From Legionella worsleiensis (GTDB lineage Bacteria > Pseudomonadota > Gammaproteobacteria > Legionellales > Legionellaceae), in assembly GCF_001467535.1 (NCBI RefSeq), contig NZ_LNZC01000004.1, forward strand, positions 1 to 64,000: DNA of 64,000 nt, in the 5' to 3' direction. Shown here piece by piece: positions 16,934-56,168 of the stretch; positions within the stretch are counted from its first letter, which is position 1, and each line of letters begins with the position of its first letter. The position numbers and the translations under genes are program-made. The notes beneath the pieces are model-generated. The model searched no databases and had not been told where the DNA came from. It was given only the letters and a program-made list of their open reading frames with translations.

Positions 16934-17459
16934 GATCGCTTCCCAGCACAATTGTCGCATCTTAATTATACATCATGAATCAATATTGCTCAAATGATAG
17001 AGCCCTAAAAGAAGTCAAAATGCAACTAACCTATTCATAATTCATATAAAATTTATATTGAAGAGATTAAGAGAAGTAATATCATCAGTTAAAAAGCCCA
17101 TGTTCATGCAAATAGAACACAGGCTGTTTGAAGTATAATAATGGGAGTTAATTAAGTACAGGCAACGACTCCCCGAAATCTGAGCCGCAACTGAAAATAA
17201 AACGGAGGTATATGCAGAGCTTAAGGTTTCCTGCTCAAAACAGGCTTACACACCACTCTTCAAAGCAACCCCCTCTCGTGGGATTATTTACTGGTTCAGT
17301 CAGGATCAGTCATTACCTATATGTCTTAATCATAGACCACCGAAATCAAAATTGGCAAATATTTATACAAAAAATACCGGGCTCACCAATAAAACGTCAT
17401 TAAAAACAATGAGATATGACCAATTTATTCGCCACGTAAATCCCAGGATCCGTTCTGAA
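16934..17459. other. Long intergenic region with one weak small ORF
   Basis: About 525 bases without a convincing gene. The one possible ORF is 17212-17403 on the plus strand, 63 codons, which has a good GGAGG seven bases before its ATG. Its protein has no recognisable feature, so it is listed separately at low confidence. No repeat, RNA or clear terminator was seen in the rest. Confidence 0.5.
17212..17403 (+). CDS. Possible small ORF with good ribosome binding site
   Basis: The only supporting feature is CGGAGG shortly before the ATG. The 63-residue product is basic, with a short hydrophobic stretch (ISHYLYVLII), and resembles nothing I know. It may be chance. Confidence 0.25.
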   Translation: MQSLRFPAQNRLTHHSSKQPPLVGLFTGSVRISHYLYVLIIDHRNQNWQIFIQKIPGSPIKRH

Positions 17460-35727: not shown

Positions 35728-35882
35728 CCTTAATGAATAGATACCTTCCTGGCGTTTCGCAAATTCAGTACAGTGTATTGAAATTTAACTGTATGGAAAG
35801 CCCTAACCCATGAATAATTATAGCTTATTTTATGCGTCAAGAAGCGAATATAAGTCGCATGATCCCAGATGGATATTAGGGT

Positions 35883-35934
35883 GTGTTGACAATTGCTCCC
35901 GCCTACGTGCCTCGACTTGTTCGAGGCATCCAAG
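35883..35934 (+). repeat. REP-like hairpin element, left copy of pair flanking GIY-YIG gene
   Basis: The core is CCTACGT (35902-35908), a 19-nt hairpin with a 7-bp stem and 5-nt loop (35909-35927), then ATCCA (35928-35932), preceded by GTGTTGACAATTGC. It is an inverted near-copy of 36386-36439, with one compensated stem pair (A-T here, G-C there). Confidence 0.9.
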
Positions 35935-35943
35935 AGATCTCGA

Positions 35944-36234
35944 TTAAGAACAAATTTCCTCATACAGATCACGCCACTCGGGATTAAGATCTTCAATCAA
36001 ATTAATTTTCCATTGTCTGCACCAGTTTTTAAAACGTTTTTCACGTCGAGCGGCTTCCAGGTAAGTTGAATGCATTTCGTAATAGACCAACATAGGAACA
36101 GTATACCGAGCAGTAAATCCTGATATTAATTTATTTTTGTGCTCCCAAACCCGTTTGATCACATCAGACATTGATCCGACATATAGAGTGCCATTGCGCT
36201 TACTCGCCATCATATAGACGTAAAATACGTTCAT
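35944..36234 (-). CDS. Small GIY-YIG nuclease domain protein
   Basis: This 96-residue protein is a free-standing GIY-YIG/URI domain (UPF0213 type). The two Tyr strands read FYVYMMAS and TLYVGS, the catalytic Arg lies in RVWEHKN, and the Glu is in YLEAARREKRFKNWCRQWK, with the C-terminal basic helix complete. Such proteins are of unknown in-vivo role; related domains cut DNA in homing endonucleases and UvrC. Notably the gene is bracketed closely by two inverted copies of a hairpin element, ten bases after one and about 150 bases before the other. Confidence 0.88.
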   Translation of the reverse strand: MNVFYVYMMASKRNGTLYVGSMSDVIKRVWEHKNKLISGFTARYTVPMLVYYEMHSTYLEAARREKRFKNWCRQWKINLIEDLNPEWRDLYEEICS

Positions 36235-36385
36235 TTATTCTTCCTTGTTATCGAGTTTTGGATTCGCTTGAATAATATCATTCAAATTGAACTGATTACA
36301 GAAGAGTAGGCTTGTCATAAATCCTTTGTTGTAGCATGATTTCGCTCTTTTTAATCAACGGATTAATGCCTTTAATTTGAGCATC

Positions 36386-36439
36386 CTTGGATGCCTCGGA
36401 CAAGCCGAGGCACGTAGGCGGGGGGGCAATTGTCAACAC
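36386..36439 (-). repeat. REP-like hairpin element, right copy of pair flanking GIY-YIG gene
   Basis: In minus orientation it reads GTGTTGACAATTG, a C-run, CCTACGT (36412-36418), the hairpin 36393-36411, and ATCCA (36388-36392). It matches the left copy except for one compensated stem pair and a longer C-run. Confidence 0.9.
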
Positions 36440-36523
36440 GTATAAGGGAGGATGAGCCCATATCATTGCCTATTTTTTAGACAAAAATTGAAGGATGACA
36501 GCGATAACGCCCTAACACTCACT

Positions 36524-36970
36524 CTAATTACCTGATTTGGCAAAATGACACGCAGCGCAAAGACCTTTTATTTCTACGGTACAATTAATAATTGAAAAAT
36601 CGATGGTGTTAGCAGATTCTGTTACAGCACTAAAATCAATAACACACTCCAGTTCTTTAACAAAATCACATTGATTACAAATAAGAAATTGAGCTTGTCC
36701 CACGTGGTGTCCATGCAAACAGGCAACATAAGACTTAAGACTGTCTATACAATGAACAAAGCCTTCCTGATGCCAGAACTGTATGGCTCGATAAACCGTC
36801 GGCGGTTTAGGATTGACCATTTCCAAAGACAATCGCTGTAATATATCGTAAGCGCCTAGCGGTTTTCTCTCATCGACCAAAATTTTGAGAACACGCTCCC
36901 TTGGCTCTGTAAATCGGTAGCCATGGTTCACACAATGTTTGTATGCTCTATCCAACAAATGATGCTTCAT
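36524..36970 (-). CDS. zur: Zinc uptake regulator, Fur family
   Basis: The 148-residue protein has the Fur fold. The winged helix contains GYRFTEPRERVLKIL and PKPPTVYRAIQFWHQEGFVH, the latter nearly identical in pattern to Zur rather than Fur. The structural zinc site is formed by CNQC and CAAC near the C-terminus. Zur represses zinc-acquisition genes when zinc is plentiful. The ATG at 36970 is preferred; the codon before is TTG. It is divergent from the P-type ATPase gene, with a perfect palindromic Zur-box candidate between them. Confidence 0.9.
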   Translation of the reverse strand: MKHHLLDRAYKHCVNHGYRFTEPRERVLKILVDERKPLGAYDILQRLSLEMVNPKPPTVYRAIQFWHQEGFVHCIDSLKSYVACLHGHHVGQAQFLICNQCDFVKELECVIDFSAVTESANTIDFSIINCTVEIKGLCAACHFAKSGN

Positions 36971-37124
36971 CAACGGTCTATACTATGGGTTTAATTATCT
37001 GGACGTTTTATTTTATCACACTCTTGATATCAATGAACGCAAATCACACCAAGAACTCTGCACCTCTCATAAATTCAATATAGTGTTTAAAAATTATGTA
37101 GTCTTACTTGCTCTTTAGCAATTG

Positions 37125-37143
37125 AGTGTTATATTATAACACT
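37125..37143. promoter_or_regulatory. Candidate Zur box
   Basis: AGTGTTATATTATAACACT is a perfect 19-bp palindrome centred at 37134, 65 bases before the ATPase start. The core TGTTATA-N-TATAACA matches the gammaproteobacterial Zur operator pattern. The adjacent divergent gene is zur itself. Confidence 0.8.
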
Positions 37144-37207
37144 TTTGAAGGTTGCCTTAAAAAATCTTCATCAGGCTCTCTCTTATCATTATCAATAGAG
37201 GAAAAGC

Positions 37208-39808
37208 ATGTACTATTATAACTTTCGCTTTCATCTTTCTGATGAAATGCACGATCTTGAAACGGCAAACATTGAAGGAATTTTGAATGCTGCTAAGGAG
37301 TTAGGCGTAGTACGTATTGCCATAGACAACAGCAAAACTCACAAAAGTCTTAGCGTATTGTCTGCATCCAAAGACCAACACTTGGTGCACAGACAACTTA
37401 GTGATCTGCTGTTAAAGGAAAAAATTGTTTTAGATGAACTTTTAGAGTCGGAACGGTTTGCGAACACAGAAGAAAAAAAAGAAAAACATCATGCCCACCA
37501 TTCCCCAGTAAAACAGACCAAACAGACGAAGACACATTCAAAAAAAACGAAAAAAACTCACCACCATAACCATAACCATAACCATAACCATAGCCATAGC
37601 CATAGCCATAGCCACCATCATGACCATGATCATCATGAAAATCATTGGCTAAAAGCATCGCTAGGATTAATCTGGGGTATAGGCTTACTTATCCTGTCTA
37701 TTGCCAGTTTGAACATCCCTTTAATCGCCTATTACGTCATCACCGGACTGACTGCCTTGATGACCCTGTATCTGGGGTGGTCTGTATATCAATCTGCCTG
37801 GAACAACTTAAAGAAGCTTAATTGGGATACCGCAACCCTTTACACGATCAGTACGTTAACCATAGTAGGGGTATCTATAACCAGTATGTTTGTTCCTGGA
37901 TTGCCAATGATGTTTGAGGCTGCTCCTTTAGTATTAGGCTTTTGGCACCTGGGCGAAGGAATAGAGCATGGCTTGATTGATAAAATCAATAAAAAACTCG
38001 ATGTTAGAGACTGCCTAAACCCCTTGGTTCAGTTAAAAGGGCAAGCCAATAAAGAAACGTCTATCAAACAACTCATGCCAAACGACATCATCATTCTTGA
38101 TAAAAACGAGATAATTCCTGTTGATGGTATAGTCACCCGCAAAACGCTGCTCTATACCACTCGCATTAACGGCTCTCCCAAGCCACGCTGGTTTAATCCA
38201 GGAGATAGGGTAAAGGCAGGCATGCAACTGGCCGAAAGTGAGTCCTCTTTAGAACTGCGTGTTACAAAAACATTTCAAAATTCCTTTCTTTCATTAATCG
38301 CCAAAAATGTGAATAAAGCCAATCAAGAAAAAGCGCCAATTGAGCTCTTTGCCAATAGGGTACTGTACTATTTTATTCCGGGGTTACTGGGCGTTGCTTT
38401 AGTATCTGGATTAACTATTGGTTTATTATTTACCCCCGCTATTGCGATCCAATGTGTTATCTCGGTACTGGTGAGCGCCTGTCCCTGCGCTTTAAGCCTG
38501 ATTACACCCCTGGCAGTTAAAATTGGCATGAATAAAACCTCGGAACAAGGGATCCATGTAAAAAACGGTAAAACATTACAAGCCGCAGCGGATATAGACA
38601 CTGTAGTTTTTGATTTGAATGGTACTCTCACTGAAGGCTCTATTGCCTTGGAATCCATCCATATTTTGGATGAGGAATTATTGGGGCAAATTGCGCTTTT
38701 GGAAACGCAATCGCCTCATCCAGCAGCAAAAGTTATTGCGGCATATATAAACGAAAAATACCCTGGCGTGAGTGAATCATTAACCCTGACCTCAGTCGAT
38801 ACAAGCCATCACTCGGGTATTAAAGGCATCATCAATGGGGAGCAATTCATTATTGGCAACAACAACATGCTAAAAGCCAATAACATCACACAAATCAATG
38901 CACCATTCGATAATCCTGAAAACGGTTCCATTTACCTGGTGCGAGGAACAACTGTTATCGGTCAAATTGCATTAACCGATCCTTTACGTTCAGATGCGCT
39001 AGCCACGGTAAGCCAGCTCAAACGCCTTGGTAAAACAGTGCATCTTTGTACAGGAGCAGATCAAGCAACAGCAGAACGATACGCTGCTCTTTTAGGCATA
39101 GAGAAAACCAACATTGCAGCAAATACAGTGGGAATTTCGACTGAACCCGATAAACAATCAAAAACACGTTATCTCGAGCAACTGCAAGCCAAAGGATGCA
39201 AGGTGGCTATGGTTGGTGATGCGGCTAATGATCTTGCAGCCATAGCGTCTGCTGATATCGGTATTGCGGTTAAATCAACCATCGGTGATTCCATCACCCA
39301 AAACGAAGCTGGCATAGTGTTAGAACAAGGAACATTATTCCCTATTGCCTCAGCATTTGATGTGGCCAAAAAAACCAAACAAACTATTTTTCAAAATCTG
39401 TTCTTAAGCCTTGCCTACAATACAGGGATCACTCTAGTTGCAGCAGGATTGTTTGTTGCCGTAGGTTTTGCCTTGAATCCGGTGCTGGGGGTTGCGTTAA
39501 TGGTGATTGAATCAACACTGATTTTAGCTAATCTTTATCGTTTCAAACAACAAAATAGTCTTACCCTTGCATCAGCAAACAAACCAGTACCCAAGTCAAA
39601 CCACGTTGATAACTCGACTACGCACATACTAAACAGTTTAAATCATCGTTCTCAACCTGATTTAGATTTACTCAAAACCCACGGCTCATTCTCTGCGCCG
39701 GTTCACACATCAACCGTGTTTACATCAGAAACACAAAAAACCTCCAGTAAGAATTTAACTGACGTGGATACTGCCCTTCTCAGTAATAGCGCTACACAGT
39801 ATGCTTGA
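37208..39808 (+). CDS. His-rich P1B-type ATPase with altered catalytic motifs
   Basis: The 866-residue protein has an N-terminal domain of about 80 residues, a linker with a long His tract (HN and HS dipeptides, about residues 119-141), and a P1B-type ATPase core. The metal-binding CPC is at residues 425-427 (SACPCALSL). The phosphorylation segment is FDLNGTLTEG with Asp469, whereas the family has DKTGT. The actuator TGE motif appears as NGSP near residue 320, and the hinge reads GDAAND instead of GDGxND. The N-domain HP motif (SPHPAAK) is present. A C-terminal polar tail of about 80 residues follows. A Zur box in front suggests induction in zinc starvation, hence zinc mobilisation rather than detoxification. 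Confidence 0.8.
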   Translation: MYYYNFRFHLSDEMHDLETANIEGILNAAKELGVVRIAIDNSKTHKSLSVLSASKDQHLVHRQLSDLLLKEKIVLDELLESERFANTEEKKEKHHAHHSPVKQTKQTKTHSKKTKKTHHHNHNHNHNHSHSHSHSHHHDHDHHENHWLKASLGLIWGIGLLILSIASLNIPLIAYYVITGLTALMTLYLGWSVYQSAWNNLKKLNWDTATLYTISTLTIVGVSITSMFVPGLPMMFEAAPLVLGFWHLGEGIEHGLIDKINKKLDVRDCLNPLVQLKGQANKETSIKQLMPNDIIILDKNEIIPVDGIVTRKTLLYTTRINGSPKPRWFNPGDRVKAGMQLAESESSLELRVTKTFQNSFLSLIAKNVNKANQEKAPIELFANRVLYYFIPGLLGVALVSGLTIGLLFTPAIAIQCVISVLVSACPCALSLITPLAVKIGMNKTSEQGIHVKNGKTLQAAADIDTVVFDLNGTLTEGSIALESIHILDEELLGQIALLETQSPHPAAKVIAAYINEKYPGVSESLTLTSVDTSHHSGIKGIINGEQFIIGNNNMLKANNITQINAPFDNPENGSIYLVRGTTVIGQIALTDPLRSDALATVSQLKRLGKTVHLCTGADQATAERYAALLGIEKTNIAANTVGISTEPDKQSKTRYLEQLQAKGCKVAMVGDAANDLAAIASADIGIAVKSTIGDSITQNEAGIVLEQGTLFPIASAFDVAKKTKQTIFQNLFLSLAYNTGITLVAAGLFVAVGFALNPVLGVALMVIESTLILANLYRFKQQNSLTLASANKPVPKSNHVDNSTTHILNSLNHRSQPDLDLLKTHGSFSAPVHTSTVFTSETQKTSSKNLTDVDTALLSNSATQYA
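37565..37612 (+). repeat. Hexanucleotide repeats encoding the His tract
   Basis: Four CATAAC units are followed by four CATAGC units, coding (His-Asn)4(His-Ser)4. Six-base units change length without shifting frame, so the metal-binding tract can vary by slippage. Confidence 0.9.
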
Positions 39809-39861
39809 ATAAAACAAAGAGCCATTCCCTAATGTGACAAGGAATGGCTGCTCCATTAATT

Positions 39862-40224
39862 TCAGCGTGCGCTATCTCGCAAGGATTTTAAAAGATGCTC
39901 ATAGTGTTCCTCAGCAAAACCTAAAGCCAAAATACGGTTATCCTGCACCAGAACAGGTCGCTTGATTAAGGAGGGGTTGGCGATAATAAAATCAATTTGT
40001 TGCAGACTGCTTAATCCTTCATAATGATCTTTGTATTTGCGGTACGTCGTTCCCTTCTTGTTAATCGGCAGCTCCCCGGCAAATTCACCCCAGAGCTTAA
40101 TTTGCTCTTTTGTTGGCGGTGTTTTTTTGAAATCAATAAATTCGTAGACTACTTGATGATGTTCCAAAAATTTACGTGCTTTTTTAACGGTATCGCAATT
40201 GGGTATGGCAAACATTGAAATCAT
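39862..40224 (-). CDS. ArsC/Spx-family thioredoxin-fold protein, YffB-like
   Basis: The 120-residue product begins MFAIPNCDTVKKARKFLEHH, matching the YffB group with a single active Cys, and continues with YEFIDFKKTPPT and the conserved LPINKKGTTYRK and SLIKRPVLV strands. These proteins resemble glutathione-dependent arsenate reductases and Spx, but most have no demonstrated arsenate activity. An ATG nine bases further in (40215) could be the true start. It is monocistronic and convergent with the ATPase gene. Confidence 0.85.
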   Translation of the reverse strand: MISMFAIPNCDTVKKARKFLEHHQVVYEFIDFKKTPPTKEQIKLWGEFAGELPINKKGTTYRKYKDHYEGLSSLQQIDFIIANPSLIKRPVLVQDNRILALGFAEEHYEHLLKSLRDSAR

Positions 40225-40305
40225 TTCTAATCCAAAGTACTTAAAATCAGGCTATATTATCGTTATCCTGATGTAATGCAACGAATTGTTTCTTCAAAAC
40301 AGTTA

Positions 40306-41376
40306 TCACGTCATCAAAGAATGAGAGACGGGGTTTTGTTCGTAATCATCCTTTTTATCAGGCAATCCTTGAGCGAGATGTCGAGCTATTCCTCGATGTT
40401 CTGATTGGGTAAAAATAGAGGCGCTTAACAAAGGGCTTTGCGAAGAACTGCTCGCACAAGAGGCGTCAGACTCAAATTCCCCTATTGCTTGCAGCTTAAG
40501 CGATGCGCATGACTCTACCAAGTCATGAAATTTTTTGTCATCTGGACCTTCATAAAATCCGCTAAGCTCCGCCCATAATTGCTCTTTGAGGGGCTCCTTA
40601 ATTAACTCCCATAACGGTTCTTTTAATTGCTGAATTTCCCCCGTTGACTGACTGTAATCAGCTGCTGGCTTTAAAACCGCCCTACCTTGCAGGTACTGTA
40701 GGCAAACACCAGACAGAATTTTGATTTTTCGGGATTCAATTTCACGCTCTAATGCGGAGTCAAAATCAATAAACTCCTGAGTACAGGGGTCGTAAATAAA
40801 TACATTTCCCTTATTCAGTTCATAATACCAGCCATGCACCTTCAAATCGCCTCTTTGTATTTTATCTAAAATAAGGGGATATGATTTTAAATGTTCCATT
40901 TGCTGCACAATATTCTTTTTGGTTGCCATTTCAAGTTCTTGCAGAGGGTCACGTAGTCCAGATGTTCTTGCCTCTTCAACAGCGTTTAATGCGGCTTGCG
41001 AATGAGAAAGCCAGGATGCAACAGAAGGTAAATGCTCTTCAATATGAGGTGTTAACAATCCTTTCATGGCACCGCAATTTGAATGCCCACAAATGATGAC
41101 ATCTTTTATATTCAGCACTTTAAAGGTGTATTCAAGCGCTGCAGTCTCGCTAAACGCAGAGGGATAAGGTGGAATAATATTCCCTATATTTCGGATGGTA
41201 AATAAATCGCCGGGATAAGCCTGGGTAATAAGACTAGGGACTATTCGTGAGTCAGAACAGGTAATAAAGAGTGTTTCAGGATTTTGCTCGCAACTGAGTT
41301 GTTCAAACAAAGTCTTCATTTCCTGAAATGATTTTTCTTTAAACCGAGATAATCCAAACAGCAACTCCATGAACAT
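40306..41376 (-). CDS. Beta-class carbonic anhydrase with long C-terminal extension
   Basis: I use the ATG at 41376, which follows GGAAATATA; the frame runs on to a TTG at 41427. Residues 1-200 are a beta-carbonic anhydrase: Zn ligands are in TCSDSRIVP (Cys, Asp-Arg dyad) and CGHSNCGAM (His, Cys), with RNIGNIIPPY between. It interconverts CO2 and bicarbonate in the cytoplasm. About 140 further residues after the catalytic domain are Ser-, Glu- and Lys-rich with helical stretches and no recognisable fold, ending QNPVSHSLMT. Family members usually end near 220 residues. Confidence 0.88.
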   Translation of the reverse strand: MFMELLFGLSRFKEKSFQEMKTLFEQLSCEQNPETLFITCSDSRIVPSLITQAYPGDLFTIRNIGNIIPPYPSAFSETAALEYTFKVLNIKDVIICGHSNCGAMKGLLTPHIEEHLPSVASWLSHSQAALNAVEEARTSGLRDPLQELEMATKKNIVQQMEHLKSYPLILDKIQRGDLKVHGWYYELNKGNVFIYDPCTQEFIDFDSALEREIESRKIKILSGVCLQYLQGRAVLKPAADYSQSTGEIQQLKEPLWELIKEPLKEQLWAELSGFYEGPDDKKFHDLVESCASLKLQAIGEFESDASCASSSSQSPLLSASIFTQSEHRGIARHLAQGLPDKKDDYEQNPVSHSLMT

Positions 41377-41427
41377 TATATTTCCATCTTTTTGATGAAG
41401 AAAAAATATCGTAAAGCTATGTTTCAA

Positions 41428-42280
41428 TTTTGTAAATACGCTTATTGGGATTAGGCCACTCTAACTACAACATCAAATCAATCATCAAGGAATAAATAAC
41501 CTCTTACTCTAAACCATCTGTTTACCCGTTTTGCATGGGATGCAGGCAAATTAGGCACGTCTTCAGTGTTCTACGATACCCGCAGAGCACGTGTAGGCAC
41601 TATTACGCCCCTGGAAACAAATCATTTTTACTTAAATGAGCTTGTTGCATCGCTAGCCTATCATTTTGATTATGCCTAAATGATTTTTTTAGGGAGACCT
41701 GATTGGGCATGATTTTTAAAATCATAACCCGTTGATTTCAGCTACCTTCCGATAAAAATAAAACCTCAGCATTTACTAAAAATATAGAGCCTCAATCCAC
41801 AGCAGAATTATCGAGGCTCTTGATTGGCTAACGAATTTGACGATTTTTTAGAGGATGGTTCAGGCTGTGCCTAGAAATCACTTGCGGGACAGAACATAAA
41901 AGTTCATTCAGGACAAGATGATTCATCCGATTAAATACCCTACATTTGCCCAGGACAACACGCAGTAAAGCAATTTAAAACCAAATCCGTATAACTTAAA
42001 ATTCATTCCTGCAGAAAGCAGCATACCCGTGCAATACAAACTGCCTGAAACGGTACTTTTACAATCTAATTTTTTGTTTGAATATCTCATTAAAGCTCCT
42101 TGGGGAATATTAAATTGTGCTTGCTCATTTATCACGCCTCTACAGGATTTAGAAAAAGCCAGAATCGTGATGATTTCCATGGTGCATGGCGATTATCGTT
42201 TAGTTTCCTGTTTATTTCTATTGTTGTACGAAAATACCTGAGCTAGAATGAAAAACACACTATATTCAGGGTAGAATGTT
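41428..42280. other. Gene-poor 850-bp region with an outer-membrane protein remnant
   Basis: The region holds the remnant at 41500-41679 and a hairpin with AGAGCCTC (41786) paired to GAGGCTCT (41813). Small overlapping ORFs on both strands at 41923-42241 have no family features and I do not support them. The last 40 bases carry the katG leader. Confidence 0.6.
41500..41679 (+). pseudogene. C-terminal remnant of a beta-barrel outer membrane protein
   Basis: A 59-codon frame lacking a start reads FTRFAWDAGKLGTSSVFYDT, continues with LETNHFYLNELVASLAYHFDYA and stops. Alternating hydrophobic strands ending in an aromatic residue, and the FYLNELVA pattern, resemble the end of Legionella outer-membrane barrel proteins. 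No upstream part is visible, so it is a decayed fragment. Confidence 0.5.
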
Positions 42281-44521
42281 ATGTATAAGGATAAAAAACA
42301 GGTGTTAAAGCGCAGCATTGCTCTCATGATACTTCCTTTAATTACTCACTCGTCTTTAGCCGGCGAGGCAGTAACTAATGATTACTGGTGGCCCAAAAAG
42401 CTTGACCTAAGCCCTCTTCGTCAAAATGACGCTCGTTCAAATCCAGCCGGTTCCTCGTTCAATTATGCCCAAGAATTTAACAGTCTGGACTTGAATGCTG
42501 TTGTAGAGGATTTGAAACAACTGATGACTACATCTCAAGATTGGTGGCCTGCGGATTATGGTAATTACGGTCCATTCTTTATTCGGATGACCTGGCACAG
42601 CGCAGGTACCTATCGTGCCATAGATGGGCTTGGCGGTGCAGATGGCGGCTATCAACGTTTTGCCCCCCTAAACAGTTGGCCAGACAATGCCAATCTGGAT
42701 AAAGCACGGCGACTGCTTTGGCCGGTGAAACAAAAATACGGCAACAAAATTTCCTGGGCAGATTTATTAGTGCTTGCTGGAAATGTCGCAGTAGATTCCA
42801 TGGGATTTAAGACCCTGGGTTTTGCCGGTGGTCGTGTAGACGCCTGGGAGCCTGAGTACGTGAACTGGGGAGCAAAAGAATGGCTTGCCAGCAATCGTCT
42901 GGATGATGGGAAAGGCAATTTACCCAAACCTTTGGCGGCTACCCAAATGGGATTGATATACGTCAATCCGGAAGGTCCGAATGGAAACCCTGACCCTTTG
43001 GCAGCAGCCAAGGATATACGTGAAGCATTTGGCCGTATGGGAATGGATGACGAAGAAACTGTAGCGCTTATTGCTGGAGGACATGCCTTTGGTAAGGCGC
43101 ATGGAGCAGCAAGCCCATCTCAATACGTGGGGCCAGCGCCCGAAGCTGCCAGTTTGGAAGAGCAAGGGTTAGGCTGGAAAAATACCTATCAAACCGGCAA
43201 AGGTGCAGATGCGATTACTAGCGGATTGGAAGGTGCCTGGACAGTAACACCAACTCATTGGTCACACAATTATCTACAAAATCTCTATCGTTTTACTTGG
43301 GTACAAACCAAAAGCCCAGGAGGCGCAATTCAATGGCAACCCAGTGACGCCAGCGCTGCTCAATTTGTTCCTGATGCTTATGTAGCCAATAAACGCCATG
43401 CTCCCATGATGTTTACAACCGATTTGGCTCTGCGATTCGATCCGGTCTATCAAAAAATTACCCAACGCTTCATGGAGCATCCCAAAGAGCTGGAACAAGC
43501 CTTTGCTAAAGCCTGGTTCAAATTATTACACCGAGATATGGGGCCAAGCTCTCGTTATTTAGGCTCTATGGTTCCTCAAGAGCAGTTCGTCTGGCAAGAT
43601 CCTGTTCCGCCTGTAGACCATCAACTGGTCGATGCTCAAGATATAACGGCGCTTAAAGTTCAGGTATTAAATTCTGGACTGACTGTTCCTGAATTAATTC
43701 GCACTGCCTGGGCATCTGCATCAAGTTTTCGTGGCACTGATATGAGAGGCGGGGCAAATGGAGCACGAATTCGACTGGCACCACAAAAAGACTGGTTGGC
43801 CAATAACCCGGAAGAACTGACTCGAGTCCTTAACAAACTGGAACAGATACAGGGTAATTTTAATAAAGCGCAAACGGGCAATAAGAAAATATCACTTGCT
43901 GATCTCATCGTTCTGGCCGGTTCTGCTGCTTTGGAAAAAGCAGCAAAAGATGGAGGTAATCCCGTAGATGTTCCATTTACGCCAGGGCGAACTGATGCCT
44001 CGCAAGAACAAACTGACGTGCAGTCTTTTTCTTATTTGATGCCAACCGCTGATGGATTTCGTAATTATTATCAACAAGATAATACTCAATCTCCTGAAGA
44101 GTTATTAGTCAAAAAAGCAAGCCTGCTCAAATTGTCAGTACCTGAAATGACTGTTTTGGTTGGTGGTATGCGCGCTTTAAATGCGAATACAAAACAAACC
44201 GAATACGGAGTCTTCACAAAAAATCCGGGTGTATTAACCAATGACTTTTTTGTGAATCTGCTGGATATGTCAACAAAATGGCAAAAATCGTCCACCGATG
44301 GTCTTTATGAGGGTGTGGATACAAAAACAGGCCAAATAAAATGGAAAGCAACTGCAGCCGACCTAATCTTTGGATCCAACTCGGAGTTACGTGCTGTTGC
44401 TGAATTTTATGCAACTGATGGCATAAACAAACAATTTACTCAGGATTTTGTTAATGCTTGGGTAAAAGTAATGAATCTTGATCGTTTTGATCTGCAAAAA
44501 AAGCAAACTCAAGGCGCTTAG
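42281..44521 (+). CDS. katG: Periplasmic catalase-peroxidase
   Basis: The 746-residue protein is a bifunctional heme catalase-peroxidase. The distal site [11 protein letters not shown] carries Arg, Trp and His; the proximal His is in [10 protein letters not shown]; and Tyr of LIYVNPEGP forms the Met-Tyr-Trp adduct with that Trp, needed for catalase activity. The N- and C-terminal halves show the gene-duplication architecture. Unlike most KatG, it starts with a signal peptide ([19 protein letters not shown]), placing it in the periplasm. Legionella is known to have one periplasmic and one cytosolic catalase-peroxidase. It is monocistronic, and a strong terminator follows. Confidence 0.95.
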
Positions 44522-44551
44522 CTAAGACCCTCCTTTGTAGTATCAAAGATA

Positions 44552-44585
44552 CCTAAGCAACCCTGCTGAAGCCGGGTTGCTTAGG
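44552..44585. terminator. Terminator between katG and convergent small gene
   Basis: CCTAAGCAACCC and GGGTTGCTTAGG form a perfect 12-bp stem with a 10-nt loop, positioned between two convergent stop codons. Confidence 0.75.
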
Positions 44586-44599
44586 ATTTGGCTGGGTAG

Positions 44600-44833
44600 T
44601 TATCGAGGCGAATAATGCGTTCCTTGTTCGGCCTCAAGTGCTGACTCCATATTTTGTCTGTAAGAACTAATCAAGCTCGACAAGCGCTGCAGTTCTTCTT
44701 GTGCCTGATGTTTGGACAAAGTTCCTTCGGTTCGTTGGCGCGAAACCAATTCTTTTTGAGCCTCAAAATTTTGTATGGCATCATGAAAGTCTTGCGCTGT
44801 TAAGTGATAATCTTTAGAAAATTTTCGAAACAT
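44600..44833 (-). CDS. Small helical hypothetical protein
   Basis: The 77-residue product is highly charged and predicted helical throughout (FHDAIQNFEAQKELVSRQRTEG, then ELQRLSSLISSYRQNMESALEAEQ), with heptad-like spacing suggesting a short coiled coil. AAAGAGAG precedes the ATG. I recognise no family. It is convergent with katG and shares the terminator with it. Confidence 0.6.
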   Translation of the reverse strand: MFRKFSKDYHLTAQDFHDAIQNFEAQKELVSRQRTEGTLSKHQAQEELQRLSSLISSYRQNMESALEAEQGTHYSPR

Positions 44834-45048
44834 GGTTCTCTCTTTTGGTATATCGAGGTTATATAGTAACTCCTGCCTTTTTTAAGTTCAATTTATAATG
44901 GCTTTGCTTTTTTTGAATTAATGATGATCATTGCTTTTACAAACCCGTTGTATCTTTTCAGCCCAAAAAAACTGGTGCCTTAAACTAAACACTGGGACAC
45001 TTTGGCTATGGGTTTCTGTTTTAAATTAATCAAAGGCCAATAACGATC

Positions 45049-45681
45049 TTAGTGCCAAGTTACCTTAAATGAATAACTATCCCAGCGTAATTCAGCAGAA
45101 GTGTGTTTGGATATTGAGGTGACTCCTGCCGGGGTTCCTGTATAAATAATATCTCCAGACTTTAAGGGAAAAAATTGGCTGATATAAACCAATAAATCCA
45201 CGGGACACATCATCATATCCGAACCTTTAGCGCATTGCTTGAGAGTACCATTAATGAACAATTGGAATTCAACATTCAAGTACTCTTGAAACTGATGATA
45301 GGGAATCCATGGCCCCAAAACAGCAGCATCTGGAAAAACTTTGGCAGTAGTCCAGGGATGCCCCTGTTTTTTTAACTCGGACTGACGTGTTCTTAGAGTC
45401 ATATCGAGGCCAAGAGTGACCTCTGAAATGGCATTACGGGCCTCTTCATAGGACATTTTATAGCCATCATGAGCGACGCGAAGTACAATTTCACATTCAG
45501 GCTGTACCGCATTATCTGCATTGGGCAAATCAAGATGGAGATGATCTCCCCAGGCAGGAGCTTGGTTGAGGACGCTGGATGGTTTTAAAAATAATACCGG
45601 TTGTTCTGGAATTGCGTCACCAAGCTCTCTGGCATGATCGAGATAATTTTTTCCGACACATACTATTTTATCAATAGACAT
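45049..45681 (-). CDS. Fumarylacetoacetate hydrolase-family enzyme
   Basis: The 210-residue protein belongs to the compact FAH family (YcgM/FAHD1-like). It opens with VCVGKNYLDHARELG, followed by PVLFLKPSSVL, then the metal ligands of CEIVLRVA (two Glu) and the Asp of LGLDMTLR, with GDIIYTGTPAGV near the end. Family members hydrolyse acylpyruvates or decarboxylate oxaloacetate; the substrate here is not determined. It stands alone at the edge of the accessory region. Confidence 0.88.
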   Translation of the reverse strand: MSIDKIVCVGKNYLDHARELGDAIPEQPVLFLKPSSVLNQAPAWGDHLHLDLPNADNAVQPECEIVLRVAHDGYKMSYEEARNAISEVTLGLDMTLRTRQSELKKQGHPWTTAKVFPDAAVLGPWIPYHQFQEYLNVEFQLFINGTLKQCAKGSDMMMCPVDLLVYISQFFPLKSGDIIYTGTPAGVTSISKHTSAELRWDSYSFKVTWH

Positions 45682-45707
45682 AGAAATTTATACCTTTTTG
45701 CATACAG

Positions 45708-45869
45708 TTAATGAAGCTTGGCGTTTATTGCCTCTATAGTTTGCCAAAATTGTTCTATTGCTTCCGATTCAGGCATAAAGATTCTAGCAAAAAATCGTGA
45801 ATAAACAGAACCAAAACCTGAGTACCTAAACTCTGAAGGTATGGGAATTATCGAATATCTTTTTGGCAA
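45708..45869 (-). pseudogene. Short coding remnant, family unknown
   Basis: A frame with a coherent amino-acid composition (SEFRYSGFGSVYSRFFARIF, then EAIEQFWQTIEAINAKLH) ends in TAA at 45708. A stop lies just upstream of 45869, and there is no good start. It is probably the 3' end of a decayed gene. I recognise no family. Confidence 0.35.
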
Positions 45870-45904
45870 TTAAAAATAGAATCAACGGTGCAATTTCAGG
45901 TCTG

Positions 45905-46105
45905 ATAATATGACAGGGTAAACGCATCTAAACGTATTATCTAAGACCAATATGCCTACGTTCTGCGCTTTATGCGCAGAATCCAGATCTTAGCCTGCAC
46001 TAAGATCGCATGGATCCTGCGCATAAAGCGCAGGACGTAGGCAAAAGGGTGGAGATTTATGTTCATAATTTAGATGCGTTTGCCCTGGATAATATGATTG
46101 GTGTC
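45905..46105. repeat. Large palindromic BIME-like element
   Basis: Two inverted hairpin units face each other. The left unit is CCTACGT (45955-45961), hairpin 45962-45980 and ATCCA. The right unit, inverted, is TGGAT (46011), hairpin 46016-46034 and ACGTAGG (46035-46041). Between them lies a third 8-bp hairpin GATCTTAG/CTAAGATC (45986-46007). Outside, CAGGGTAAACGCATCTAAA is repeated inverted near 46065-46090. Geometry and flanks match the pair around the GIY-YIG gene. Confidence 0.85.
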
Positions 46106-46238: not shown

Positions 46239-46664
46239 ATGAAGAAAACCATTTTTGATGATATTGATAATTTAGAAAAAGAAGCCGTTCTTTTTGGTCT
46301 AAAATGGGAAACCAAAGCCCAAATTATGGAACAAATTCGCAATGAGTGCCTGGAAATAGAAGAACATCTGGAATCAAAAGACAACAGAACAGCCTTGCAA
46401 GATGAAATAGGTGATCTACTGCATGCGGCCTTTTCTTTATGCACTTATTGCAACTTTGATACTGAGCTTACCCTCCGAAAAAGCCTGGATAAATTTGAAC
46501 ATCGTTTAAACGCTATGAAGGCCATTGCGAAAGAGCAAGGGTTAGAAAATCTACAAGGCAAATCATTTGATGAATTGATGCGCTATTGGAAATTGGCAAA
46601 ACAAAGAACCTTAATTCCAGAAACCGCAAGTGTAAGTGGTACCAAAAAAACGCTCCAGCCATGA
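46239..46664 (+). CDS. MazG-like nucleotide pyrophosphohydrolase
   Basis: The 141-residue protein is an all-alpha NTP-pyrophosphatase. The Mg-binding helix reads IRNECLEIEEHLE and is followed by LQDEIGDLLHAAFSL, the classic EExxE...ExxD arrangement. Single-domain MazG proteins hydrolyse NTPs to NMP and pyrophosphate and may clean the nucleotide pool or moderate alarmones. It corresponds to one MazG domain. It is followed in the same frame, 21 bases after its stop, by a small zinc-ribbon ORF. Confidence 0.88.
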   Translation: MKKTIFDDIDNLEKEAVLFGLKWETKAQIMEQIRNECLEIEEHLESKDNRTALQDEIGDLLHAAFSLCTYCNFDTELTLRKSLDKFEHRLNAMKAIAKEQGLENLQGKSFDELMRYWKLAKQRTLIPETASVSGTKKTLQP

Positions 46665-49750: not shown

Positions 49751-50748
49751 GAGGGTCAGATCTTGCCCTTTGCCTCTCGCATATAATGTTGTTTTATAAT
49801 TCTACTAATTCTTGAATAATGAAGCCCAAAATGTTTTCCAATTTCCTTCATAGAATACAATCCACTTTTATATAAACTATATATTGCCTCATCTCGATTG
49901 TCTGGCATTCGTTCATATTCTTCAATTGCAATGCCTTTAATTAAATCAGGTAAATGAGTCCTGGAAATATCTGTAAAATCAATTGTAGGCTTAACATAGC
50001 TCACTGCCCTGGAAATAAACTCATCCGAACCAAGATATATTTGATGCTTTAGATCAAGCAACGGACTTTTCTTACTTAAACCAGCATCAACGAATTGTTC
50101 ATAGTTTATTAATGCCTCTGATTTAATAGAACCAAATGATGATAAAAGCCAATCAACAGTCAGCCATGATGGAACTGATGCTCTACCACTTGTTGCTAAA
50201 TAACTACTCCAATGCCACTCACCTGCCTTTTCAACCATCTTTGCTCTAACAGGATTTAATACTAGGTAACGTGACAACTCCAATAGACAACTGTCTTTCT
50301 CAACCAGTATAGATTTATAGCGACCTTGCAGGACATGCCCAATACGCTTGTGTGATGTATTAAATTTCTGAGTGGATACACCGTTTTGGTAACGCATTCC
50401 TTTTGAAAGATTACCGAGCGGAGTTTCAATCAGTAAATGGTAATGATTTGTCATTAGACAATACGAATGGCATAACCACTGGTATTTTAAACAAACATCA
50501 CCCAAAATAGATAAAAAATTTTCTCTGTCTTCATCTGATAAATAGATCGCCTCTTTTCTATTTCCTCGACTGGTGATGTGATAGAGCCCACCAGCAAACT
50601 CAATGCGCAAAGGTCTTGCCATCGCTAATCCTGGACTTGCTTGATTCCTTTTGAAAGAAAATTAATGCACTGGGAAATAATTATCAAGAGTTAATTCCAA
50701 GCTTGATGACATTTATGGATTAAGGCAAAAAGCAAGATCTGACCCCTC
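49751..50748. mobile_element. RAYT transposable unit with inverted ends
   Basis: GAGGGTCAGATCTTGC (49751-) is matched inverted by GCAAGATCTGACCCCTC (ending 50748), with further similarity inwards (CCTTTGCC against TTTTTGCC). The two ends enclose the transposase gene. No target duplication was identified. Confidence 0.75.
49756..50622 (-). CDS. REP-associated tyrosine transposase (Y1, IS200/IS605 superfamily)
   Basis: The 288-residue protein has the RAYT/TnpA-REP pattern. ARPLRIEFAGGLYHITSRGN at the start is followed by the HUH pair in CLMTNHYHLLIETP, then LSRYLVLNPVRAKMV, with the nucleophilic Tyr expected in that segment, and GEWHWSSYLA. The C-terminus carries a helix-turn-helix (IGKHFGLHYSRISRIIKQHY). 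Such enzymes handle short hairpin repeats. Hairpin elements with matching geometry occur elsewhere in the window, though a direct link is only inferred. Confidence 0.9.
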   Translation of the reverse strand: MARPLRIEFAGGLYHITSRGNRKEAIYLSDEDRENFLSILGDVCLKYQWLCHSYCLMTNHYHLLIETPLGNLSKGMRYQNGVSTQKFNTSHKRIGHVLQGRYKSILVEKDSCLLELSRYLVLNPVRAKMVEKAGEWHWSSYLATSGRASVPSWLTVDWLLSSFGSIKSEALINYEQFVDAGLSKKSPLLDLKHQIYLGSDEFISRAVSYVKPTIDFTDISRTHLPDLIKGIAIEEYERMPDNRDEAIYSLYKSGLYSMKEIGKHFGLHYSRISRIIKQHYMREAKGKI

Positions 50749-55763: not shown

Positions 55764-56168
55764 TGGTGGAGGCGGCGGGAATCGAACCCGCGTCCGCAAA
55801 TCCTCTGCCTTCAGCTCTACATGCGTAGCCTTGTCTTTTGATTTAACTGTGCATTCTCCGACAGGCAGGATACTACACAGCGATTCCCTGAGTTTCGCAC
55901 CTTAATTCGGGATGGATTAAGACACTAGCTTATCTCTTATGACCGTTGATTCGATACCGATAAGCGGGCTCGGTCGAACGGGATACTGGGTTTATTGGCC
56001 AGTACACAGTGATGGTTCAACTAAAGTGCTTATTAGGCAGCGATAGCTTCTCCACCAGCAAAGTTTTCATCGTTTGCGTTTATATTTAGTTGAGTCTGAT
56101 TTACGAGAGTTCTCATTCTCGGCATGCACCTCTGGTTTTGTAACCCACGTCGAAGCCAGGTCGCCCCC
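55764..56168 (-). ncRNA. ssrA: Transfer-messenger RNA
   Basis: The RNA begins GGGGGCGACCTGGCTTCGAC and ends CCCGCCGCCTCCACCA; the ends form a 7-bp acceptor stem with one G-U pair, and the tRNA-like T-arm GGTTCGATTCC is present. The tag frame (56077-56033 on the minus strand) reads ANDENFAGGEAIAA followed by TAA, with Ala as resume codon, matching the known Legionella tag. It rescues stalled ribosomes with SmpB. The 405-nt length is normal to slightly long. Its 3' end is a well-known integration site, and accessory DNA abuts it here. Confidence 0.97.

What the first reader, a model, noticed from the sequence alone, without database searches (positions are those of the whole stretch)
35883..46105. 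A family of REP-like hairpins with fixed flanks and covarying stems
Four elements share the layout CCTACGT + 7-bp stem + 5-nt loop + ATCCA: 35902-35932, 36388-36418, 45955-45985 and 46011-46041. The two pairs use unrelated stems (GCCTCGA/G versus T/CCTGCGC), and within each pair a stem pair changes by compensation (A-T to G-C; T-A to C-G). That argues for selection on the folded single strand, as for transposase-recognised REP sequences. A RAYT transposase is present in the same window. The feet contain GTAG or GGAT tetranucleotides on the two sides of the hairpin.
Basis: partly seen in the sequence, partly recalled or inferred. Interest (0 to 1): 0.8.

Follow-up and report, generated by a model that had tools for sequence, protein, structure and literature searches.

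The report
Hairpin repeats paired with GIY-YIG nuclease

Summary
The four 31-mers are where stated. The genome has 79 exact CCTACGT-N19-ATCCA hits; the reversed pattern has none. Across the genus the feet stay fixed while stems vary with compensation: among 150 listed hits from other genomes, 34 of 93 distinct ones are fully paired (shuffled mean 2.1, maximum 8), with 22 different perfect stems.

The interpretation changes. Pair 1 (35902/36388) brackets a GIY-YIG gene (35947-36234, minus strand) in a deleted IS5-type element; relatives keep transposase, GIY-YIG gene and hairpins together. Pair 2 (45955/46011) lies in a 174-bp ISAs1-type MITE with 10-bp duplications, present about 40 times. The window's RAYT-like gene has its own unrelated inverted repeats. 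None of the Y1 transposases checked lay within 1.5-2 kb of a hairpin. GIY-YIG genes often do, also outside the genus, with feet CGTC...CCA.

Most likely these are a CGT-tagged variant of CGTC REPs and the single-strand sites of a small Ssn-like GIY-YIG nuclease, carried by DDE transposons. Cleavage is untested; one hairpin-rich genome (27 hits) shows no GIY-YIG at the cut-off used.

The parts
35902..35932 (+). hairpin B-left: CCTACGT + 7-bp stem GCCTCGA + loop CTTGT + ATCCA
36388..36418 (-). hairpin B-right, inverted, stem GCCTCGG, loop CTTGT
35947..36234 (-). GIY-YIG nuclease gene, 96 aa, intact; its stop codon lies 15 bp from hairpin B-left
   Evidence: (PF01541, E 3e-14, 53 bits)
35879..35895 (+). 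left IS5-type terminal repeat GGGTGTGTTGACAATTG, preceded by TA
36427..36440 (-). right end: inner part of the same terminal repeat (CAATTGTCAACACG); the outermost bases are changed, so this copy has a defective end
   Evidence: read by eye against the copies
45914..46087 (.). 174-bp MITE with 19-bp terminal repeats CAGGG[TC]AAACGCATCTAAA (45914-45932 and 46069-46087)
45904..45913 (.). target site duplication GATAATATGA, left copy
46088..46097 (.). target site duplication GATAATATGA, right copy
45955..45985 (+). hairpin A-left: stem TCTGCGC, loop TTTAT
46011..46041 (-). hairpin A-right, inverted, stem CCTGCGC, loop TTTAT

Best explanation
The hairpins are sites for a small GIY-YIG nuclease that reads folded single-stranded DNA: constant feet (CGT on one side, ATCCA on the other) and hairpin shape, with a stem free in sequence as long as it pairs. 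Nuclease gene and hairpins form a module: the gene is bracketed by two inverted hairpins. In this genus the module rides on an IS5-family insertion sequence (ends, transposase, GIY-YIG gene, hairpins just inside the ends), and hairpin pairs have also been built into short non-autonomous elements, among them the 174-bp ISAs1-type MITE. The copies in the window are a transposase-less IS5-type derivative with an intact nuclease gene (pair 1) and one MITE copy (pair 2). Shown: fixed feet, covariation, inverted pairing, adjacency of GIY-YIG genes, purifying selection on the gene, the IS5 and ISAs1 frames. Inferred: that the protein binds and cuts the hairpin as single strand, and that this helps the element to spread, to be kept, or to influence DNA taken up by transformation.
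For: Covariation on hits chosen by feet alone: 534 of 651 stem cells Watson-Crick against 359 (sd 8) shuffled; all four Watson-Crick pairs at stem position 1. Own genome: of 15 CTTGT-type hairpins in the 10 loci fetched by hairpin alone (L066-L075), 12 lie within 300 bp of a GIY-YIG frame or remnant; with the 8 loci fetched through the GIY-YIG search it is 26 of 29. Genus: 24 loci with a transposase over 50% alike (21 distinct places): GIY-YIG in 19 (16 of 21), hairpin in 18 (15 of 21); 6 loci with a distant IS5 transposase (under 45%): no hairpin, and no GIY-YIG except one 28%-identity hit 1.1 kb away. Outside the genus: 26 of 73 GIY-YIG loci have an inverted hairpin pair within 400 bp, against 0 of 50 far windows and 0 of 73 shuffles; 33 of 78 have a TGG-hairpin-ACG/ACA within 120 bp 3' of the gene, against 0 of 68 far windows and 0 of 1560 shuffles. 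Catalytic-type residues (Y7, Y18, R28, H32, E65, N84) invariant in 25 aligned sequences (their roles recalled). dN/dS 0.05-0.19 in 17 of 19 comparisons; the other two were dropped. Hairpin number per genome follows GIY-YIG number (Spearman 0.40, p 0.007, n 45), not Y1 number (0.10, p 0.50).
Against: No cleavage data. G004 has 27 hits but no GIY-YIG match at E<=1e-8, only a remnant in L205; G001 has 11 hits and none. In the sample of 38 genus hairpins only 5 loci held a clear GIY-YIG stretch (a sixth at 28% identity). None of the 40 fetched ISAs1-MITE loci (487 bp each) holds GIY-YIG. 47 of 73 and 45 of 78 GIY-YIG loci showed no hairpin by the criteria used. Gene and hairpins are linked on one element, so adjacency alone does not prove recognition. 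Several dS values are near saturation.
Confidence: 0.7

Rival explanations
1. REP/RAYT: the hairpins are REP sequences recognised and moved by the tyrosine transposase in the window.
For: A Y1 transposase is present; hairpins and inverted dimers resemble REPs and REPINs.
Against: Its own inverted repeats are unrelated. No hairpin within 1.5 kb of the three Y1 loci of the genome nor within 2 kb of 37 Y1 genes in other genomes (capped lists). G004, G021, G032 and G043 have 27, 23, 43 and 24 hits and no Y1 match. GTAG is not directly 5' of the palindrome, as the REPs described in PMC8266576 have it (passages).
Confidence: 0.05
2. The hairpins are structural ends of the transposons (subterminal repeats, or terminators/insulators against transcription), and the GIY-YIG gene is an unrelated passenger.
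For: In the IS5-type elements the hairpins lie just inside the terminal repeats, and one follows the GIY-YIG stop codon by about 15 bp.
Against: The same feet occur in elements with different ends (IS5-type, ISAs1-type, TGTAGCCTGG-type) and in pairs without a detectable outer repeat; the distant IS5 loci checked lack them (6 of 6); outside the genus hairpins flank GIY-YIG genes with no IS5 frame noticed (transposases were not searched there); the unpaired feet are conserved, which a terminator would not need, and no T run was seen.
Confidence: 0.17
3. Compensatory stem changes arise by mutation alone: template switching between hairpin arms copies one arm onto the other, without selection on the fold.
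For: Stems of 7 bp with short loops are classic substrates for such correction (recalled). Within the MITE family two-sided changes are few: 3 of 79 arms, against 14 with a one-sided wobble and 3 broken.
Against: It does not explain why 12 foot positions outside the stem stay fixed across 41 of 45 genomes while stems change; one-sided changes in the MITEs mostly keep a G-T wobble (14 of 17).
Confidence: 0.15

Closest known systems
CGTC-tagged REPs, including dRS3 of Neisseria (Di Nocera et al. 2013, PMC3733652: abstract, sections 6, 7, 14 and passages seen)
   Same: Unpaired CGT tag, short perfect stem, 5-nt loop, CCA tail, heterogeneous stems, frequent inverted dimers with differing arms. [quoted passage not shown]
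   Different: Here the fourth tag base is part of the variable stem, the stem is 7 bp (8-9 there) and lacks the AT/AT first two pairs, so the AT before CCA is unpaired. Here the repeats ride in IS5- and ISAs1-type elements.
Ssn family of site-specific single-strand GIY-YIG nucleases and the meningococcal NTS repeat (Nature Communications 2025; recalled; not held; not found by searches)
   Same: Small GIY-YIG protein linked to a multi-copy short repeat around its gene.
   Different: Homology with the meningococcal protein and cleavage were not tested here; an IS5 or ISAs1 carrier is not something I recall from that work.
QMITE2 of Coxiella burnetii (PMC5896051, passages seen)
   Same: 150-190-bp MITE with 7-11-nt direct repeats that contains a REP, described there as GTAG-type.
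   Different: No sequence could be compared; no ISAs1 or GIY-YIG mention in the main text for ISAs1 (0 occurrences), GIY-YIG not looked up there.
REP/RAYT systems and REPINs (PMC8266576 passages; other papers seen as listing only)
   Same: Dispersed hairpins, inverted doublets, nuclease-type partner acting on folded single strand.
   Different: Other feet (no GTAG directly 5' of the palindrome) and another enzyme class next to the repeats.
IS5-family (NCBIfam NF033580) and ISAs1-family (NF033564) insertion sequences
   Same: Transposases over the curated cut-offs in relatives (182 and 207 bits against 110; 232 and 80 against 70); TA before the IS5-type ends; 10-bp duplications for the MITE.
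   Different: Extra GIY-YIG gene and subterminal hairpins; that neither is usual for these families is recalled.

Membership tests
GTAG REP / RAYT system | GTAG directly 5' of the palindrome | tested here: not met
   Feet are CCTACGT / ATCCA; GTAG lies 3' of the hairpin on the other strand; requirement from passages of PMC8266576
GTAG REP / RAYT system | REPs next to a RAYT gene | tested here: not met
   3 own Y1 loci without hairpin within 1.5 kb, one of them cut by a contig end; 0 of 37 listed Y1 genes within 2 kb
CGTC REP superfamily | unpaired CGTC tag at one end | tested here: not met
   CGT is fixed; the fourth base is the first stem base and takes all four letters. The paper allows TGTC and CCTC variants
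CGTC REP superfamily | 8-9-bp stem starting with paired AT | tested here: not met
   7-bp stem without it in the genus; met in loci outside the genus, e.g. CGTCATTCCGGCGAAAGCCGGAATCCAG
CGTC REP superfamily | CCA tail, 4-5-nt loop, inverted dimers | tested here: met
   ATCCA tail and 5-nt loop (the search pattern fixes tail and length); 25 of 38 sampled loci have an inverted partner
Ssn-type GIY-YIG nuclease | GIY-YIG domain | tested here: met
   PF01541, 53.4 bits against cut-off 22.6
Ssn-type GIY-YIG nuclease | gene bracketed by its repeat (recalled) | tested here: met
   window copy; 26 of 73 relatives' loci
Ssn-type GIY-YIG nuclease | site-specific cutting of single-stranded DNA | not testable with these tools
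   needs biochemistry
Ssn-type GIY-YIG nuclease | sequence homology with the characterised meningococcal protein | not tested
   no such sequence was fetched
IS5-family insertion sequence (carrier of pair 1) | IS5 transposase between TA-flanked terminal repeats | tested here: inconclusive
   met in relatives (L159, L160, L166, L161); the window copy shows no transposase and its right end is degenerate; TA precedes 9 of 9 ends after dropping one chance match
ISAs1-type MITE (pair 2) | ends shared with an ISAs1-transposase element | tested here: inconclusive
   one matching end lies beside an ISAs1 frame in L194 and in L189; a complete ISAs1 element with both ends was not seen
ISAs1-type MITE (pair 2) | terminal repeats and 8-10-bp target duplication (range recalled) | tested here: met
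   39 of 40 fetched loci have both ends; 35 of 39 match at 8 or more of 10 flanking bases, 25 at all ten

The most novel reading that the evidence does not exclude
CGT/CGTC-tagged REPs have a dedicated enzyme after all: a GIY-YIG nuclease that reads hairpin shape plus feet on single strands. In Legionellaceae this module has merged with a DDE insertion sequence, giving a transposon with two engines: a double-strand transposase for jumping and a single-strand hairpin nuclease that favours the element's spread or retention during replication or natural transformation, in the way TnpB serves IS605-type elements (comparison recalled).
Probability: 0.27. Interest if true: 0.8.

Novelty: new variant of a known kind. 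Interest (0 to 1): 0.62.

Why it matters
A 2013 survey left open which enzyme, if any, serves CGTC-type REPs. The data here point to small GIY-YIG nucleases as their partner in several phyla, give a testable code (fixed feet, free but paired stem), and show the hairpins riding in two families of classical transposons. If cleavage is shown, hundreds of dispersed hairpins per genome become predictable single-strand cut sites, which bears on transformation, replication and the spread of small repeats.

Tried and rejected
RAYT as partner: rejected. Two-mismatch foot pattern: useless, control equal. Hairpins as Rfam RNAs: nothing at gathering score over either pair; the only two hits in the window lie elsewhere. 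Autonomous IS5-type or ISAs1-type element in this genome with matching ends: none recognised among the end hits; the assembly is a 31-contig draft, so copies at contig breaks could be missed; a decayed distant IS5 frame exists (L271). Pairs without any outer repeat as a separate REPIN-like class: left open; outer flanks of 22 pairs were compared, 3 scored 13 or more and others 9-12, but mismatched controls also reach 13 in 20 of 462, so weak ends are not decidable. Structure prediction of the GIY-YIG protein: not run, the machine was busy three times. PDB search: weak hits only (best 0.00026 to a WD-40 designed or repeat protein, UPF0213 1ywl at 0.056), not used. Dropped rows: L161 (read on the wrong strand) and L164 (infinite dS), and L094 and L167 appear to be the same gene counted twice; L076 (no stem at the searched place). 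The decay of transposases beside intact GIY-YIG genes was not used as evidence because those loci were picked by their GIY-YIG match. The control for one search had 1 reversed hit.
Full report
Observation. The four elements are present exactly as described. The pattern CCTACGT-N19-ATCCA has 79 exact hits in the 3.07-Mb genome and its reversed form none. By hand count 63 hits have stems of the (T/C)CTGCGC-TTTAT type (family A), 14 of the GCC(T/G)(C/T)GG-CTTGT type (family B), and 2 are not hairpins. Allowing two mismatches drowns the signal (246 hits against 245 in the control).

Covariation. In 45 genomes of the genus (own genome included) the pattern occurs in 41. The listing is capped; of the 150 listed hits from G001-G019, 93 are distinct. 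The search fixes only the feet, so the stems are a fair test: 534 of 651 stem cells are Watson-Crick against 359 (sd 8.4, maximum 387) after dealing the 3' arms anew, 34 of 93 are fully paired against a mean of 2.1 (maximum 8), there are 22 different perfect stems, and stem position 1 shows C-G, G-C, A-T and T-A. Related copies inflate such counts, but the range of stems is beyond one event. Inside the own genome the picture is different: the T-A/C-G asymmetry of pair 2 is carried by nearly every MITE copy, so it is one old change; of 79 arms, 20 have further changes: 3 two-sided, 14 with a one-sided wobble, 3 broken.

Pair 2 is part of a MITE. The outer sequence CAGGG(T/C)AAACGCATCTAAA occurs 87 times with up to three mismatches and never reversed. 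Of 40 loci fetched round family-A hairpins, 39 have both ends, 174 bp apart in 38 and 173 in one; the fortieth shows one end only. The flanking ten bases agree at all ten positions in 25 of 39 and at eight or more in 35 of 39. In the window the element is 45914-46087 with GATAATATGA on both sides, between the ORFs at 45049-45681 and 46239-46664. In two other genomes of the genus a near-identical end lies beside an ISAs1-family transposase frame (L194, L189), so the MITE is of ISAs1 type; no complete ISAs1 element with these ends was seen. Another genome (L191) has a similar element with other stems and the same kind of feet.

Pair 1 brackets a GIY-YIG gene. The 96-codon frame 35947-36234 (minus) is a GIY-YIG protein (PF01541, 53 bits, cut-off 22.6). 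Fourteen PF01541 matches exist in the genome; eight have a family-B hairpin within the fetched flank on at least one side, two are parts of long frames (625 and 471 aa), two have other long inverted repeats (L010, L012), two show none of this kind. Starting from hairpins instead (L066-L075), 12 of 15 family-B hairpins lie within 300 bp of a GIY-YIG frame or remnant; together with the loci found through the gene it is 26 of 29. Most copies in this genome are decayed. The element has outer ends GGG(T/C)(C/G)TGTTGACAATT with TA before 9 of 9 ends (one chance match dropped).

The full-length carrier. In relatives (L159 Fluoribacter gormanii, L160, L161, L166) the same ends enclose, in order, a hairpin, an IS5-family transposase (NF033580, 182 and 207 bits, cut-off 110), the GIY-YIG gene and an inverted hairpin. 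In genome G025 a 253-codon transposase frame without stops recurs in near-identical copies. Of 16 further GIY-YIG copies fetched from G025 and G021, 16 match the transposase, 9 show two hairpins and 7 one, some because the fetched stretch ends too early (these were chosen by the GIY-YIG match and show layout only). Searching from the transposase, 24 loci with more than 50% identity (21 distinct places, some already known from the GIY-YIG search) have GIY-YIG in 19 and hairpins in 18; 6 loci with a distant IS5 transposase have no hairpin and no convincing GIY-YIG. So hairpins and nuclease gene go together within one IS5 lineage.

Beyond the genus. Of 80 GIY-YIG loci from named genomes (99 relatives were found, the best 80 kept), 73 have at least 100 bp on both sides; 26 carry an inverted hairpin pair within 400 bp, against 0 of 50 windows further out and 0 of 73 shuffles. 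In 78 loci with at least 60 bp downstream, 33 have a TGG-hairpin-ACG/ACA within 120 bp 3' of the gene, against 0 of 68 far windows and 0 of 1560 shuffles. Hosts include Nitrospinae, Chloroflexota and many Alphaproteobacteria; their hairpins are of the CGTC...CCA kind. The GIY-YIG frame evolves under constraint (dN/dS 0.05-0.19 against 17 of 19 relatives; two dropped; some dS near saturation), and Y7, Y18, R28, H32, E65 and N84 are invariant in 25 sequences.

Against the RAYT reading. The window's Y1 protein (49756-50622) scores 68 bits for NF047646, below the cut-off of 80, and lies between its own 23-nt inverted repeats (49753-49775 / 50723-50745). Per genome, hairpin number follows GIY-YIG number (Spearman 0.40, p 0.007) and not Y1 number (0.10, p 0.50; n 45); 21 of 23 genomes with five or more hairpins have GIY-YIG matches, 14 of 23 have Y1; among the 22 others it is 12 and 14.

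Against my reading. G004 has 27 hits, no GIY-YIG match at E<=1e-8 and no Y1; G001 has 11 and no GIY-YIG. In a systematic sample of every fourth listed hit (38 loci), 5 held a clear GIY-YIG stretch, 1 a doubtful one; 25 held a second, inverted hairpin; 13 showed an IS5-type end; 1 locus had no hairpin at all. Many hairpins therefore live away from the gene, as REPs do. Some pairs have a third kind of end (TGTAGCCTGG...), some no end that can be told from chance. Linkage on one element does not prove that the protein reads the hairpin.

Mechanism. Fixed unpaired feet plus a stem free in sequence but bound to pair is what a protein reading a folded single strand would leave behind. The enzyme consistently next to such hairpins is a small GIY-YIG nuclease. 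From memory, a 2025 paper describes Ssn nucleases of this class that cut single strands at a repeated sequence in Neisseria; that paper is not held here. The 2013 survey equates Neisseria dRS3 with CGTC-1 REPs and found no enzyme for CGTC REPs. The simplest joint reading is that the hairpins here are a CGT-tagged sister form of CGTC REPs and the sites of a GIY-YIG nuclease. What cutting achieves (spread into new sites, retention of the element, control of incoming DNA) is open.

Novelty. Hairpins with fixed feet, CGTC REPs, GIY-YIG site nucleases (recalled) and MITEs are each known. I did not find in print the feet variant described here, a GIY-YIG passenger with hairpins in an IS5-family element, or the link between CGTC REPs and GIY-YIG genes (searches of an open-licence library only; the recalled Ssn paper probably covers part of the last).

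Noticed in passing
window 49756-50622 (-), repeats 49753-49775 and 50723-50745: RAYT-like Y1 transposase bracketed by its own 23-nt inverted repeats GGGTCAGATCTTGC..., resembling the TIR-flanked type (TIRYT) described in PMC3733652.
   Followed up: partly
L010:900-951 and 1817-1868: A second GIY-YIG gene type (155-aa frame) of the same genome sits between 52-nt inverted repeats (96% complementary) of another sequence.
   Followed up: no
L012:900-944 and 1780-1824: A third GIY-YIG copy (one stop) between 45-nt inverted repeats ending in ...CCTCTGGATG.
   Followed up: no
L206, L218, L230: Hairpin pairs whose outer flanks share ends like TGTAGCCTGGGTGAAGG, a third carrier type.
   Followed up: partly
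G000:C27:237528-237608 and G000:C22:31470-31672: Very short elements (81 and 203 bp) with IS5-type ends in the own genome.
   Followed up: no
window 17155-17247 (-) and 55764-56168 (-): Legionella RNA LPR10 and tmRNA (Rfam matches).
   Followed up: no
G019, about 20 places: A distant IS5-family element in about 20 copies with the same score and identity; the two copies looked at have no hairpins and no convincing GIY-YIG gene.
   Followed up: partly
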